Source: a virus
Reading direction: 5' to 3' (one strand)
IMG/VR virus record: IMGVR_UViG_3300033183_000299
Location: 62,001-126,000 of that record
Length of the DNA: 64,000 bases
Shown: positions 1 through 63,190 of the stretch, one piece after another
How positions within the stretch are numbered: the first letter of the stretch is position 1
Layout: every line of letters begins with the position of its first letter
Position numbers and translations under genes: made by a program
Notes under the pieces: model-generated
Told to the model about the DNA's origin: nothing
The model's input: only the letters and a program-made list of their open reading frames with translations
Databases searched by the model: none

Positions 1-263
1 TTTGCAATAGTTTTTAGACCATAACCTTCCTCATAAGAACTGGTGAGATAATTTTTGAGAAAAAGAAAGTGGTCTGGATAAATCCTTTCGGCATTATTCC
101 GAATAAAAGATCTTTTATTTGATGATCTCGCAGAATTTCCCATTTGAGACACTCTTGCTGATGCATATTTTCTATATTCTTCCAAGAACTCTTCCGGAAT
201 TACCACTTCCTTTCCCTTGTCTGTGTTATAATAAATAACTTCTAAACATTCTTTTAAATTCAT
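1..263 (-). CDS. Partial gene, probable free-standing homing endonuclease inside the nrdJ split intein
   Basis: The first 87 codons are present; the rest lies beyond the window edge. The ATG at 263 follows a good AAGGAG site (274-280). The peptide starts MNLKECLEVIYYNTDKG and ends in EEGYGLKTIA, which looks like the start of a helix-turn-helix; the catalytic part would be outside the window. It lies directly downstream of an nrdJ N-half that ends in half an intein. In known fractured phage genes (NrdJ-1, gp41-1 type) a free-standing Vsr-like (EDxHD) endonuclease gene sits between the two intein halves. The endonuclease assignment therefore rests on context, not on visible catalytic residues. 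Translation is probably controlled by the hairpin at 262-312. Confidence 0.5.
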   Translation of the reverse strand, partial: MNLKECLEVIYYNTDKGKEVVIPEEFLEEYRKYASARVSQMGNSARSSNKRSFIRNNAERIYPDHFLFLKNYLTSSYEEGYGLKTIA

Positions 264-312
264 TTCGGGCTACACTCCTTACATTATTTTATTGTAAATA
301 GTGGCCCGAAAT
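262..312 (-). promoter_or_regulatory. RNA hairpin hiding the ribosome site, with late-type promoter motif inside
   Basis: On the minus strand, ATTTCGGGC (312-304) and GCCCGAAAT (270-262) form a perfect 9-bp stem whose 3' arm overlaps the ATG at 263. Inside it, CACT pairs with AGTG and TTACA pairs with TGTAA, so the AAGGAG Shine-Dalgarno lies in paired or nearly paired RNA. The motif CTATTTA (301-295), also found before structural genes, lies inside the 5' half of the stem. A transcript starting just downstream of it would lack the 5' arm and free the ribosome site. T4 uses this logic for I-TevI and MobE. Confidence 0.7.
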
Positions 313-322
313 GGCAAAATAA

Positions 323-1624
323 TTATTCAACGAATAAAAGAATGTCCTCTTCGGTTAAATGTGCCGCTTCAACATAGCCTCTGTTTTCAGTGAATACTCT
401 GTGGTCTGGGGTTAGGATTAATTCCTGTCCGTCCTCGGTTTCAATCTTGATGACATCGGCATCTTGTCTCGTAAGAAGACCCTCTTCAACCAACTCAAAC
501 TCCATTGACCCCGTGTTCTCATCAAATGATAAGACCTTTATTTCTTGACCTTCATTGACTTTTGAGACGATCTGTTCGATTGTCATTGTACCAGAATTCG
601 TCTCTATCTCAGTTGAGCCATCCAAACAACATGGGTTGCAACCCCAATCTTTGTCGTTCGAGAAGTAGAAACCGGGCTCTCCAGAGCGAGACTCTTCAAC
701 ACGCTTCCATAGATTCATGAATGTTGGCTTGTCGATCTTGTGACGCATTACAACTACAGAATTATTCGCTCTTCCTCGTTGTGGGTTGAGTTCCCACCAA
801 GCTCCGGCCTTTGCGCTAAGCATGTCTTCGTCATCAGCACTGAATAGACTAATGAGAGCGGCGCGACGAATACCGCCCGCCAAAACCGCATCCGCAATGT
901 GGCAGATGATATCATGAACCTCAATGGGTGAAAGCTTGTCTCCGTTTTCTTTCGCATCTAAAATTCCCTCCACTTTTACCAGACACTCCTTTAATGGCTG
1001 AGGGCCTGGTGCTTTACCACCTGATGTTACAAGTCTCGCACCTTTGGGGCGAATGTCCGAGAAGTCAAAACGCAACTTTGACGTTCCCTTAAAGTGAGAC
1101 ATCATAAGGGCTTTTACAGCATCGGCCCATCCTTCGATTGAGTCACCAATTAAGAAACGACGAGTTCTCTTTGATGAAGGCTTGCGAATCTCTGGGAGGT
1201 TATCTACATGATGCTTTTGCACTGAATAGCCCACACCTGTGCCTCCAAGAAGTAAGAACATGATCTCTCCGAACACTCGAGGATCATCAGCGGGTGCATA
1301 AGCGCAGTTAAAGATGCGGTTCGGCGAAACCTCAATTGGCTTACCTCCAAACTGCATCGATCTCATTGAAGGAAGAACCTTCTTGTCGAACACGAATTTG
1401 TAGTTCTCACGGATCTCTTGCTCGAGACTTGGAAACTTCTTGATGTGCATTTCCATATTACGAGTTACTAACTCGTTCCAGTTTTCTCGACGATTCTTAT
1501 CTTCAAGATATCGTGCATATTTCATGTGGACGGTGATGTCCGACAGAATCTTTTTCTCTAAATCCATACCTTTCTCCTGTAGTTTTTTGTAGTATTCTTT
1601 TTCCTTTTCTGTGTAGGTGTCCAT
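323..1624 (-). CDS. nrdJ: Class II ribonucleotide reductase, N-terminal part, ending in split-intein N half
   Basis: 433 residues. Residues 1-332 match adenosylcobalamin-dependent ribonucleotide reductase of the monomeric RTPR type: LPSMRSMQFGG, the redox cysteine region FNCAY (about residue 106), GGTGVGYSV, SGEPGFYFSN, and the finger-loop GCNPC that normally continues as GEI. The enzyme reduces ribonucleotides to deoxyribonucleotides for phage DNA synthesis. The reading frame then passes into an intein N half (326-628) and stops, so the catalytic core is incomplete. A second gene with the intein C half and C-extein is expected further down the minus strand, beyond position 1. The start at 1624 is 2 nt after the gp41 stop and probably coupled to it. 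No small (NrdB) subunit is seen here, which agrees with class II. Confidence 0.85.
   Translation of the reverse strand: MDTYTEKEKEYYKKLQEKGMDLEKKILSDITVHMKYARYLEDKNRRENWNELVTRNMEMHIKKFPSLEQEIRENYKFVFDKKVLPSMRSMQFGGKPIEVSPNRIFNCAYAPADDPRVFGEIMFLLLGGTGVGYSVQKHHVDNLPEIRKPSSKRTRRFLIGDSIEGWADAVKALMMSHFKGTSKLRFDFSDIRPKGARLVTSGGKAPGPQPLKECLVKVEGILDAKENGDKLSPIEVHDIICHIADAVLAGGIRRAALISLFSADDEDMLSAKAGAWWELNPQRGRANNSVVVMRHKIDKPTFMNLWKRVEESRSGEPGFYFSNDKDWGCNPCCLDGSTEIETNSGTMTIEQIVSKVNEGQEIKVLSFDENTGSMEFELVEEGLLTRQDADVIKIETEDGQELILTPDHRVFTENRGYVEAAHLTEEDILLFVE
326..628 (-). other. Split intein N-terminal half (NrdJ-1-like) within nrdJ
   Basis: 101 residues from C1 (CLDGSTEIET) to the stop. Block A starts with the nucleophilic Cys directly after the NPC of the extein. 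Block B is visible as LTPDHRVFT (residues 72-80), with the TxxH that assists the N-S acyl shift, and a NRGYV...LTEED segment follows. There is no endonuclease domain or C-terminal HN motif before the stop, so this is half of a split intein and not a truncated cis intein. Insertion after NPC is the site known for the NrdJ-1 split intein. The two halves would have to associate and trans-splice to give working reductase. Confidence 0.85.
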
Positions 1625-11566: not shown

Positions 11567-11595
11567 ATTATAACATAGTTTTGATAACTTGTCAA
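11567..11595 (-). promoter_or_regulatory. Consensus promoter directly before tRNA fragment no. 2
   Basis: Perfect TTGACA (11595-11590), 17-bp spacer, perfect TATAAT (11572-11567). The -35 hexamer overlaps the stop codon of the HNH gene ending at 11592. Confidence 0.88.
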
Positions 11596-12182
11596 GTATT
11601 TTTATAAGATTTTTGATATCTCTCTTTTCTGCAAGAATTTTTGTTTTTAGATTTGTAAGTCTCTAATTGAGAATCACAATTGTGACAGATTAGTCTGAGA
11701 TTATTTCTCATATTGTTAGATGCTCGACCATCAATATGATCCAAGATAAAATTCAACTCTTTCCCATTCCACTCATTCTTCATTCCGCAAATATCACAAC
11801 GCTCCGCCTGCTCTTTCAATATCCAAGGTTTTACAAAACGCATGTTTCTATCATTACAATATTCTTCTTGATTGCTTATGAAGTGAAGATATTTTTTTTG
11901 CCTTCTATGTTCAGACGAACAAAAATGAGAGCAGAACTTGGCATTCTTGCTAGGGCTTTTAAATTCACTCTTACAATACATACATTCCTTATGTCTTCCT
12001 AGACCAGCATTGTGAGGTTTCCAGCCAGAAGGATTCTTCTGTCTTATTGGAAGGGTTATTCCCAACTTTTTAGAAACTTTTCTAATATATGCTCCAGAGA
12101 CACCATAGAGTTTTCCGATTTTCTCATAAGATAGATTTTCTTCAAAGATCAGTTTTTCTAATTCTTCTTTTTTGTATTTCAT
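11592..12182 (-). CDS. HNH homing endonuclease with N-terminal helix-turn-helix
   Basis: 196 residues. The N-terminal helix-turn-helix (LSYEKIGKLYGVSGAYIRKV, about 17-36) is followed by a zinc knuckle ECMYCKSEF...KFCSHFC, then CDICG...LNFILDHIDGRASNNMRNNLRLICHNC, the HNH core with DHIDG and the asparagine loop. This combination is common in free-standing phage homing endonucleases. A GGAGG site precedes the ATG at 12182, and the hairpin 12175-12205 covers both. It lies between tRNA-Arg and the tRNA fragment at 11524-11561. Confidence 0.85.
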   Translation of the reverse strand: MKYKKEELEKLIFEENLSYEKIGKLYGVSGAYIRKVSKKLGITLPIRQKNPSGWKPHNAGLGRHKECMYCKSEFKSPSKNAKFCSHFCSSEHRRQKKYLHFISNQEEYCNDRNMRFVKPWILKEQAERCDICGMKNEWNGKELNFILDHIDGRASNNMRNNLRLICHNCDSQLETYKSKNKNSCRKERYQKSYKNT

Positions 12183-12210
12183 AACATTTCCTCCGCTATG
12201 AAATAAATAG
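12175..12210 (-). promoter_or_regulatory. Start-codon hairpin with overlapping late motif, HNH gene at 12182
   Basis: TATTTCATA (12205-12197) pairs perfectly with TATGAAATA (12183-12175), a 9-bp stem that buries the ATG in its 3' arm and leaves GGAGG in the 13-nt loop. CTATTTA (12210-12204) overlaps the first bases of the 5' arm, so a transcript from it would start inside or beyond the arm and lose the hairpin. Same design as 262-312. Confidence 0.75.
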
Positions 12211-60328: not shown

Positions 60329-60540
60329 CCGTGTCTCCAAGTTCTTGCGAAGTCAATCGCAGTTTGGCCACCGATGTAGGTCATGGCGATCATCCCCCAT
60401 GTGTCGGCATCTAATCCAACGCCCAAATACAAAAGGGCAGTAGCGACAGCGAATACAAGGAGCTTTCTTGAGATTGCTCTTTCCATTACGCTATCGATAA
60501 TGCCCTTCTTTTCTTCTTTTGATTGTTTAGAGTCTTCCAT
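60325..60540 (-). CDS. Small membrane protein, holin candidate (71 aa)
   Basis: 71 residues. Charged N terminus, then two hydrophobic stretches (LLVFAVATALLYLGVGL and WGMIAMTYIGGQTAIDFA) joined by a short turn. YIGGQ..IDFAR resembles the C-terminal region of small phage holin-like membrane proteins. Size and topology fit a holin that would start lysis. No endolysin gene is visible in the window, which lowers certainty. Confidence 0.45.
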   Translation of the reverse strand: MEDSKQSKEEKKGIIDSVMERAISRKLLVFAVATALLYLGVGLDADTWGMIAMTYIGGQTAIDFARTWRHG

Positions 60541-60580
60541 AATAAGTTCTCCTATGGTTGACCCTAAGTAGTTTCAGAGT

Positions 60581-63190
60581 TTACAATTTGACTTGTGCAT
60601 ACCCGTCAGTCTTATCGATCTCAATTGTTGTATCAACAATGTCCTTGAGACTTTCTAAATGAGTGATCAGCAATACTGTTTTGAATTGAGTTTTGATCAT
60701 CTGAAGTAATTGAACAAAACCTTCCATATGCTCAGCATCTAATGCCGTTGCCGGTTCATCAAGAATGAATAGTTGGCTCTTTGGTAGAGACGATACTGAG
60801 ATTAGGGCAAGTCGAACAGCCATAGAAGCAATTGTCTTTTCAGCACCAGACCCCATGGACAATGGTCGAGCATCATATTTCGGATGCTTTAGGTAGACCT
60901 CCAACTTATCTCCATCCTCAGCAAAGAACACTTGAAAATCAACGATGGAAGAAAGAACTTTTTGGATCTCATCGTTGATGATTGGAAGCATTGATTTGAT
61001 AACTTCGTATGAAATTCCATTCGCATGAGTTGCTTTTACAAAGATGTCATAAGCAATGTAATCACGCTCAGCTTCTTTGATTTGTTCAATTCTCTCATTG
61101 GCTTCCTGAATCATACGTTCAGCAGAACCTTTTTCAGACATGTACCCAAGAACCTTTTCATCGCATCGTTTGATATCGGCAATCTTCAAATCAACAGTCT
61201 TATTGATTGCTAATAAGTCTCTCTTAAGGGAGGAAAGGTTTTCATACGCTTCAATGTTTTCGTTGTAGTATGCGATATCTGAATTGAGCTTCTCGATACG
61301 ATGCTCAGCTAAAGATGCTTTACCTTCAAAGTTTTCCCACTGAATACTCATGTTTCTGATTTCATCAGTTAGTTTCTTATGAGATGTTTTGCTATCTGAA
61401 TATCGATTGATAATGTTGTTCAGCGCTTCTTCATCAAACAAAGAACCTTTCATTTTAAGATCCAAAAGCTTTGACTTGATGTCTTCAATCTCAATATTCA
61501 TTGGAGGTACTTTGCTTTTTGCTGCTTCCGCTTCCTTTACAAACTCATTATCGCAACAATATTTACAATCCGGATCGTACTCATGACCTTTGAGCATATC
61601 TATCTTTGATTGTAAGTTATCTCTCTTACGAGTTTTGCTTTGGAGGTCTTTGGTCAACTCTTTTAATTCTGACTTGATGGTCTCTAGGTCTTTGAGTTCA
61701 AGTTCAGCCTTATTGGAAGCTTCAAGCATGCTTGGAAGAGAAGAGGTCAAATCTTCAATCTGAGAGCGTTTTGACTTAATCTTGGTAGACAATGCCTCCA
61801 TTTGATTGCGAGAACTTGAGAGTGTCTTTTCGGCCTCTTTAAGAAGTGATTTGACTGAATCAATATCTATCTCTTTTTGGGATGCTGCCTCTACTTGTTC
61901 TTTGATCATCGTTTGTTCTTGTTTAAGGGTATCTAAACGGATATTGTGTCGATCGCATAAGTCTTTTTGAACCTCGATATCTTCAAGGATCTCGGACAAC
62001 TCCTCTTTCGCTCGAGACAATTTCTTATCCCAATCAGCAGATTGAAGATGTTTGATTACGCCACGCATTTCGGCAGAGTCTTGCTTTGCTAGTTTGTGCA
62101 TTTGATCAAATATTTGAAGATCCAAAAACTTAGCCAGAATTTCTTTGCGTTTCGTTGATCCTTCGCTGATAAATCCAAAAGAATCGTTCTGTGCTGCTAG
62201 AGAGGTCATCATAAAGTCCTCTAATGACCCAAAAGTATCCTTGATGTTATCATCAGTTTTGTTTCGGGTATCTCCATTTTTGGACTCCGGAGTTGTTCCA
62301 AAGTTATACTTTGTAAAGTCTAGCTCTGTTTTAGCCGAGATGACTTCTCGACCTTTAGACTTTCCGGTTGTTTTTTCGAGGCTTCGAGCAATTTTATAAA
62401 CATCATCGCCGACAGCGATCTCGAGCTTACAAGAAGCTCTTTCTTGGTTTTGATTGATGATATGGACATTCTTTCTTTCTCCCTTAGATGTAGTATTAAA
62501 TAGGCCAAACAAAGCAGCGTCAATAATTGAAGACTTGCCTGAATAGTTTTTACCGAAGATGCCCACAAGCCCATTTAACTTGCTGAAATCTAGAGTATTG
62601 CCTTTTCCGTAATTAAATAGGTAGTCCCACTTCATTTTCTTAATATCCCAAACAACATTTCGAGATACGCCGTTCGATGAATCAACTTTCTTTAAATACT
62701 CTTGCGAAAGCTCAACTACGCGATCTTTGACTGAGTCTTCAACTTCATTTGTCTCCATAAATTCACGAAGAAACTTTTCTTGATTCTTTGGGTCTCGCAT
62801 GTTGATTGCCTTACCGCCATTGGCTGAAGACACCGAAGCTGATGACTGAGAATTGTTTACAAAAGAAACCGAATGAGTCGACCACTTAACTTGGGCGTAA
62901 TCGCAGGCTCTCTTTAATTTTGCTGTGGGTAAGTTATAATTACAAACCAATCGTAAACGAGCATTCTTGGGTACATCTACATTGGGTAGTGTACCATCTT
63001 GATTTAGATGCACTGTAATAAATGGTCGAGGAGATTGGAATAATCTTTTCTCGATTGAATGCTTGTCTTTGGAGTGAATATTCCAAATCAAATAACCTTT
63101 TAGGCGAGACTCTCCAAAGTTCTGTTGCACAGTGCTGCCTGCATAAATGCAGATGCACTTCTTTTTTCTTAATTTAATTTTTTTAGCCAT
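60581..63190 (-). CDS. Rad50/SbcC-like recombination nuclease subunit gp46, fused to the C-terminal half of gp47
   Basis: 869 residues. Residues ~210-869 are gp46/Rad50: Walker A GKNYSGKSS near 215, long coiled coils, a zinc hook CKYCC near 541, ABC signature LSMGSGAEKTIASMAVRLAL near 780 and Walker B LFILDEPATALD near 810. Residues 1-165 match the C-terminal half of Mre11-like gp47: YAGSTVQQNFGESRLKGYLI (T4: YIGTPWTLTAGDENDPRGFW), PKNARLRLVCNY, and the capping helix QEKFLREFMETNEVEDSVKD (T4: LQTLMEEYINAIPDITDSDR). The phosphoesterase half with the metal ligands is missing and should lie upstream of the HNH gene. GGAGG precedes the ATG at 63190. The complex processes double-strand ends for UvsX. 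Confidence 0.85.
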   Translation of the reverse strand: MAKKIKLRKKKCICIYAGSTVQQNFGESRLKGYLIWNIHSKDKHSIEKRLFQSPRPFITVHLNQDGTLPNVDVPKNARLRLVCNYNLPTAKLKRACDYAQVKWSTHSVSFVNNSQSSASVSSANGGKAINMRDPKNQEKFLREFMETNEVEDSVKDRVVELSQEYLKKVDSSNGVSRNVVWDIKKMKWDYLFNYGKGNTLDFSKLNGLVGIFGKNYSGKSSIIDAALFGLFNTTSKGERKNVHIINQNQERASCKLEIAVGDDVYKIARSLEKTTGKSKGREVISAKTELDFTKYNFGTTPESKNGDTRNKTDDNIKDTFGSLEDFMMTSLAAQNDSFGFISEGSTKRKEILAKFLDLQIFDQMHKLAKQDSAEMRGVIKHLQSADWDKKLSRAKEELSEILEDIEVQKDLCDRHNIRLDTLKQEQTMIKEQVEAASQKEIDIDSVKSLLKEAEKTLSSSRNQMEALSTKIKSKRSQIEDLTSSLPSMLEASNKAELELKDLETIKSELKELTKDLQSKTRKRDNLQSKIDMLKGHEYDPDCKYCCDNEFVKEAEAAKSKVPPMNIEIEDIKSKLLDLKMKGSLFDEEALNNIINRYSDSKTSHKKLTDEIRNMSIQWENFEGKASLAEHRIEKLNSDIAYYNENIEAYENLSSLKRDLLAINKTVDLKIADIKRCDEKVLGYMSEKGSAERMIQEANERIEQIKEAERDYIAYDIFVKATHANGISYEVIKSMLPIINDEIQKVLSSIVDFQVFFAEDGDKLEVYLKHPKYDARPLSMGSGAEKTIASMAVRLALISVSSLPKSQLFILDEPATALDAEHMEGFVQLLQMIKTQFKTVLLITHLESLKDIVDTTIEIDKTDGYAQVKL

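What the first reader, a model, noticed from the sequence alone, without database searches (positions are those of the whole stretch)
1..1624. Fractured nrdJ: split-intein N half followed by an endonuclease gene
nrdJ stops 101 residues into an intein that begins at the known NPC|C site with block B TxxH intact, and a new gene starts 60 nt downstream. This matches the rare fractured-gene arrangement in which trans-splicing is needed for the product. The intein differs in sequence from NrdJ-1 as I recall it and could be a new fast split intein.
Basis: partly seen in the sequence, partly recalled or inferred. Interest (0 to 1): 0.7.

Follow-up and report, generated by a model that had tools for sequence, protein, structure and literature searches.

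The report
Split-intein fractured phage nrdJ
A phage's DNA-precursor enzyme gene is cut in two by a mobile DNA-cutting gene, and two self-splicing protein tags should stitch the enzyme together again; the arrangement is known, but its relatives show a shared on-switch and one case where the cut gene appears to have fused back together.

Summary
The window lies in a 183,930-bp virus record; past position 1 come a complete 275-aa endonuclease gene, then a 42-aa intein C half (…NHNFFANGLLVHN|CEIGL) fused to the rest of nrdJ. This is a complete fractured nrdJ of the NrdJ-1 kind (IntN about 39% identical). The intein sits directly after the cysteine that aligns with thiyl-radical Cys408 of L. leichmannii reductase. 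77 of 80 close relatives have the exact empty site; over 20 contigs carry the same cassette. Two predictions failed: the endonuclease is canonical PD-(D/E)xK, not Vsr/EDxHD, and +1 is Cys, not Ser.

From the comparison: (1) most such cassettes carry a hairpin over the endonuclease start, often with a late-promoter-like motif inside, the logic T4 uses for I-TevI; (2) near-identical contigs L149 and L159 carry the fractured and contiguous form of one intein, and L159's linker keeps a fossil of the endonuclease C-terminus, so it looks like a natural re-fusion; (3) the same phage has a second broken gene (dnaE) around a LAGLIDADG gene. Trans-splicing and homing are inferred, not shown. New member of a known kind.

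The parts
629..1624 (-). nrdJ N-extein, 332 aa, class II ribonucleoside-triphosphate reductase; ends ...DWGCNPC. The last Cys aligns with the thiyl-radical Cys408 of L. leichmannii RTPR (1l1l)
   Evidence: role of Cys408 from established knowledge
323..628 (-). Split-intein N half (IntN), 101 aa plus TAA stop; Cys1, block B TPDH; net charge -19
261..313 (-). Leader hairpin: 5' arm CATTTCGGGC (313-304), 3' arm GCCCGAAATG (270-261), which contains the endonuclease ATG (263-261); the Shine-Dalgarno AAGGAG (280-275) is mostly paired inside the structure
   Evidence: z about -5.7 against dinucleotide shuffles; structure
295..301 (-). CTATTTA, inferred late-promoter motif inside the hairpin, 38 nt before the endonuclease ATG
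   Evidence: In 80 kb of this phage, 10 intergenic sites on the coding strand against 1 on the other; upstream of tail sheath, head-tail adaptor and three other homing-type endonuclease genes
1..263 (-). 5' part of the 275-aa free-standing PD-(D/E)xK endonuclease gene, cut by the window edge. Whole gene: G000:C1:61436-62263. Next, overlapping its end by 49 nt, comes IntC plus nrdJ C-extein (347 aa, IntC 42 aa, ...LLVHN|CEIGL), G000:C1:60441-61484, with SD CAGGAG

Best explanation
A complete fractured gene: a mobile cassette (IntN tail, leader hairpin with internal late promoter, PD-(D/E)xK homing endonuclease gene, IntC head) sits in nrdJ directly after the codon of the active-site radical cysteine. 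Shown by sequence: the order of parts, all intein sequence blocks and splice residues (Cys1, TxxH, HN, Cys+1), the exact empty site in relatives, and a distribution that does not follow the host gene. Inferred: the two products associate (acidic IntN, basic IntC) and trans-splice into a 637-aa NrdJ; in mixed infections the endonuclease cuts the empty nrdJ site so that repair copies the cassette in; the hairpin blocks endonuclease translation from nrdJ read-through mRNA, while late transcripts that start inside it lack the 5' arm and allow translation late in infection.
For: Gene order read in the same record. IntN and IntC score as intein halves. 77 of 80 close nrdJ relatives are contiguous exactly at this junction, up to 97% identical in the N-extein. 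The same cassette (IntN 61-72%, endonuclease 65-68%) sits at the same site in nrdJ genes only about 68-80% alike in the N-extein, so it moves independently of the host gene. Against L083 the IntN, endonuclease and IntC have near-saturated synonymous change with dN 0.23, 0.27 and 0.06: all under purifying selection. The junction splits the loop that holds Cys408, so an unspliced enzyme should be dead. The endonuclease model is an HTH-like part plus a PD-(D/E)xK fold (TnsA Z 8.2, Bax1 6.2, I-Bth0305I 4.9). Leader hairpins: z<=-3 in 20 of 31 cassettes against 16 of 97 control gene junctions (p=9e-7). Late-type promoter motif in 17 of 31 leaders against 1.35 expected and 9 of 97 controls. T4 precedent: PMC2988022.
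Against: No activity was tested: neither trans-splicing nor cleavage of the empty site. About a third of cassettes lack a clear hairpin, the close relative L087 among them. That CTATTTA is the late promoter is inferred from position and strand bias only. No trace of donor sequence was seen in the flanks. An operator resembling the homing site, as T4 I-TevI has, was not found.
Confidence: 0.88

Rival explanations
1. Gene in pieces without splicing: the two NrdJ halves associate and work as two chains, as reported for Aeh1 NrdA split by mobE; the intein halves are only a dimerisation clamp.
For: A functional genes-in-pieces RNR exists (Friedrich 2007, cited in PMC10448857). Split-intein halves bind tightly (established knowledge).
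Against: All splicing residues are intact and the halves are under purifying selection. The break lies directly after the radical cysteine, where a chain end with a 101-aa tail should abolish activity.
Confidence: 0.06
2. Assembly or sequencing artefact, or a decayed contiguous intein with a chance stop.
For: Metagenomic record; contiguous mini-inteins of the same family exist.
Against: The same stop position, spacer logic and gene order recur in more than 20 independent contigs. IntC has its own SD and ATG and is not reached in frame from IntN.
Confidence: 0.02
3. The leader hairpin is a transcription terminator or mRNA-processing signal for the nrdJ N half, not a translational timer of the endonuclease.
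For: Strong hairpin just after a stop codon.
Against: No U-run follows it; the ATG lies in the 3' arm and the SD is mostly paired; a late-type promoter motif lies in the leader in 17 of 31 cassettes. Termination here would also silence nrdJ-C, for which no promoter of its own was noticed in this phage.
Confidence: 0.15

Closest known systems
NrdJ-1 split intein (fractured nrdJ; structures 8ubs, 9omb)
   Same: NrdJ host, NPC| junction, IntN about 105 aa, IntC about 40 aa. Locus L151 carries an IntN 105/105 identical to the NrdJ-1 sequence and has an endonuclease of the same PD-(D/E)xK family between its halves.
   Different: Ours is about 39% identical in IntN, 38% in endonuclease, 55% in IntC. 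+1 is Cys (CEI) against Ser (SEI). The host gene is on another nrdJ branch: the L151 and L156 N-exteins are only 38-39% identical to ours.
Fractured genes (Dassa et al. 2009, Nucleic Acids Res 37:2560; text not held here)
   Same: Conserved enzyme broken by a split intein with a free-standing endonuclease gene between; mainly phage; RNR a frequent host (7 nrdA and 2 nrdJ cases per PMC3653736).
   Different: Endonuclease is canonical PD-(D/E)xK rather than the Vsr-related family named in that work (from memory). Here the leader and promoter logic and cis/split interconversion are examined over many loci.
T4 homing endonucleases I-TevI/II/III, SegB and Aeh1 MobE
   Same: Hairpin sequesters the RBS on read-through mRNA; late promoter inside so that late mRNA escapes (PMC2988022).
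   Different: Different nuclease families; intron-encoded or free-standing, not in a split intein; promoter motif here is CTATTTA, with T4-like TATAAATA in other cassettes.

Membership tests
Fractured gene / naturally split intein | Enzyme gene broken in two; N half ends in IntN with block A nucleophile and block B TxxH | tested here: met
Fractured gene / naturally split intein | Separate downstream gene starting with IntC (blocks F/G, ends HN) and a nucleophile at +1 | tested here: met
   IntC 42 aa...NHNFFANGLLVHN|C
Fractured gene / naturally split intein | Free-standing endonuclease gene between the halves | tested here: met
   275-aa ORF with invariant PD-(D/E)xK residues
Fractured gene / naturally split intein | Exact uninterrupted alleles exist | tested here: met
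   77 of 80 relatives
Fractured gene / naturally split intein | Trans-splicing activity | not testable with these tools
   needs expression of both halves
Vsr-like EDxHD homing endonucleases (I-Bth0305I) | EDxHD catalytic motif in place of (D/E)xK | tested here: not met
   E217-I-K219 follows PD203; the ExK pair is invariant in 24 relatives. Same broad nuclease fold (3r3p Z 4.9, 1cw0 Z 4.6). Definition of the motif from memory
PD-(D/E)xK nuclease superfamily | Core fold with E...PD...ExK | tested here: met
   Motif; model aligned to TnsA (Z 8.2, rmsd 3.4, 119-120 aa) and Bax1 (Z 6.2, rmsd 2.6, 78 aa). Foldseek alone gave no match at E<=0.001
T4-type hairpin/late-promoter controlled homing endonuclease genes | Hairpin covering the translation start with a late promoter motif inside | tested here: met
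   (structure and motif only)
T4-type hairpin/late-promoter controlled homing endonuclease genes | Translation from late transcripts only | not testable with these tools
   needs RNA mapping and reporters
Homing endonuclease | Cleaves the empty host allele near the insertion site | not testable with these tools
   Indirect evidence only: empty sites, mobility; NUMOD3 motif in the distantly related L066 enzyme

The most novel reading that the evidence does not exclude
Fracturing is reversible: a fractured split intein can be re-fused into a contiguous mini-intein in nature. L149 and L159 are about 99% identical over 5.2 kb and 2.3 kb on either side, one fractured, one contiguous. L159's intein linker still encodes, in another frame, the endonuclease C-terminus ELKWWKQKRLLNLES* (L149: ELKWWKQNRLLNLES*), and the IntC start ATG has become GTG. 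L159 sits inside a clade of fractured alleles.
Probability: 0.65. Interest if true: 0.65.

Novelty: new member of a known kind. Interest (0 to 1): 0.5.

Why it matters
The locus adds a complete, sequence-divergent NrdJ split intein (acidic IntN, basic IntC, Cys+1) with its endonuclease to a small set of natural trans-splicing pairs that are also tools. The comparison makes an open question testable: how split inteins arise and whether the state is permanent. Near-identical fractured and contiguous forms of one intein can be expressed side by side. It also suggests that phage split-intein cassettes carry their own timing device, so that the interrupted enzyme can be made early and the endonuclease late.

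Tried and rejected
A single-protein search with the endonuclease found no close relatives in viral contigs; relatives came through the IntN alignment. Rfam: one chance-level hit, no intron or riboswitch. Donor-derived flank conversion: no signal, our exteins resemble the empty alleles up to the junction. I-TevI-like operator resembling the homing site: not found. CTATTTA as a late promoter in the literature: no paper held. Dassa 2009 itself is not in the library; statements on it come from memory or from papers citing it. NCBIfam and PDB searches with the dnaE intein-like halves gave no significant hit. MAFFT alignment of the leaders was not informative for covariation because the arms do not align; shuffles and control junctions were used instead.

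Full report
Observation. The minus-strand ORF at window 323-1624 is nrdJ (332 aa) running into 101 aa of intein. The window is G000:C1:62001-126000 of a 183,930-bp virus record, so the other side of position 1 could be read. There lie, in order on the same strand, a 275-aa endonuclease gene (G000 61436-62263) and a 347-aa gene (60441-61484) whose first 42 aa are an intein C half, METRTYNRTKIKKITVEKNRDVYDIQVRKNHNFFANGLLVHN, followed by CEIGLRPFQFCNL... to the nrdJ end ...CGGGSCEIF. IntC starts inside the end of the endonuclease gene, with its own Shine-Dalgarno sequence. A profile search of the whole record with the Pfam intein model finds only these two halves.

What it is. IntN is 39% and IntC 55% identical to NrdJ-1. 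NrdJ-1 appears in a natural setting as L151: the IntN there is identical over 105 aa to the NrdJ-1 sequence, and its endonuclease is 38% identical to ours. So ours is a relative of the whole NrdJ-1 cassette, endonuclease included. Alignment of an uninterrupted relative with L. leichmannii RTPR puts the last N-extein residue on Cys408, the thiyl-radical cysteine (its role is established knowledge). The cassette therefore cuts the active-site loop, which makes splicing, not mere assembly, the likely need. In other RNR genes the same family of cassettes sits at NP|CGE, so that there the conserved cysteine itself is the +1 nucleophile.

Mobility. Of 80 close nrdJ relatives, 77 are contiguous exactly at NPC|CEI. 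Two others carry inteins there: L065 a contiguous one with an HNH domain, L066 a fractured one with a NUMOD3-bearing, distantly related endonuclease. An IntN alignment search brought 80 more loci. L083-L104 hold the same cassette in nrdJ genes only about 68-80% identical to ours in the N-extein, and more cassettes are in other RNR genes. Endonuclease ORFs fell into 34 clusters; 24 of the relatives align with invariant W166-L-R-S, E172, Y200-x-P-D203-F, E217-x-K219 and W261. The model of the L083 enzyme (mean pLDDT 86.6, pTM 0.51) has an N-terminal helical part with HTH matches and a PD-(D/E)xK domain (TnsA Z 8.2, Bax1 6.2).

Control element. Between IntN and the endonuclease lies a hairpin, CATTTCGGGC...GCCCGAAATG, that contains the endonuclease ATG, with CTATTTA inside. 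In 80 kb of this phage CTATTTA occurs 10 times in intergenic DNA on the coding strand and once on the other; it lies 25-47 nt before tail sheath, head-tail adaptor, other genes of that region and four homing-type endonuclease genes. Over 31 cassettes, 20 have z<=-3 just after the IntN stop against 16 of 97 control junctions (p=9e-7); 17 have a CTATTTA- or TATAAATA-type motif in the leader against 1.35 in shuffles and 9 of 97 controls. The stems differ in sequence between cassettes while pairing is kept in most. This is the design documented for I-TevI, SegB and MobE (PMC2988022). Late timing is inferred.

Fractured and contiguous forms. An IntN+IntC tree needs at least 7 cis/split changes. Well-supported mixed pairs are L107/L141 (100/96), L121/L125 (100/87) and L159/L149 (99/90). 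L149 and L159 are 98.9% identical over 5,195 bp before and 98.6% over 2,299 bp after the junction; L149 is fractured, L159 contiguous. L159's linker derives from the endonuclease/IntC overlap: the endonuclease frame still reads ELKWWKQKRLLNLES*, with a tryptophan (W261) conserved in the whole endonuclease family, and the IntC ATG has become GTG. Nested among fractured alleles, L159 is best read as a re-fusion. Clustered differences in the last 45 nt of IntN, mostly synonymous, suggest that the fused version came from a sister allele by recombination. It was seen in one contig only, so an assembly error is not wholly excluded.

Same phage, other elements. nrdJ's 3' end carries an HNH homing gene with a duplicated nrdJ tail, and dnaE is broken around a LAGLIDADG gene; see Noticed in passing.

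Verdict. Observation confirmed, interpretation supported, endonuclease class corrected. New member of a known kind; the wider value lies in the leader statistics and the fractured/contiguous pair.

Noticed in passing
L166 7414-12190 (-) = G000:C1:45413-50189, outside the window: dnaE (Pol III alpha) of the same phage is broken by a free-standing LAGLIDADG+Myb gene with CTATTTA and a weak hairpin before it. The halves carry intein-like ends (...LTLSPNLFVKVSRNGDKKEVMVKNLQEGDALLAS* / MNFTISKIEKLDN...GLLVHN) without canonical splice residues; relative L168 ends FRN instead of VHN. Six close relatives are uninterrupted (FERFLTRGSxGFPDIDIDF). Possibly a decayed split intein or a non-spliced gene in pieces.
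   Followed up: partly
L002 13665-14442 (-) = window about -2336 to -1559, outside the window: An HNH gene after nrdJ, followed by a second copy of the nrdJ C-terminus. The tail inside nrdJ matches other HNH-bearing phages (91%), the displaced copy matches HNH-free relatives (96-98%): the element seems to have replaced the gene's end and left the old end behind.
   Followed up: yes
window 11592-12210 (-): Another HNH endonuclease gene preceded by CTATTTA and a small hairpin pairing over its start: the phage seems to use the same control for several homing genes.
   Followed up: partly
window and L002, intergenic, minus strand: TTGACA/CTTGACA and TGTTATA are strand-biased (8-9 to 0-1) in intergenic DNA: likely sigma70-type early promoters. 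One (TTGACA...TGTTATATT) lies just before the dnaE C half.
   Followed up: no
L117, L119, L132, L149: Some phage nrdJ genes carry two or more intein-like insertions at different sites (N-extein residue 128, 332, and C-extein 114).
   Followed up: no
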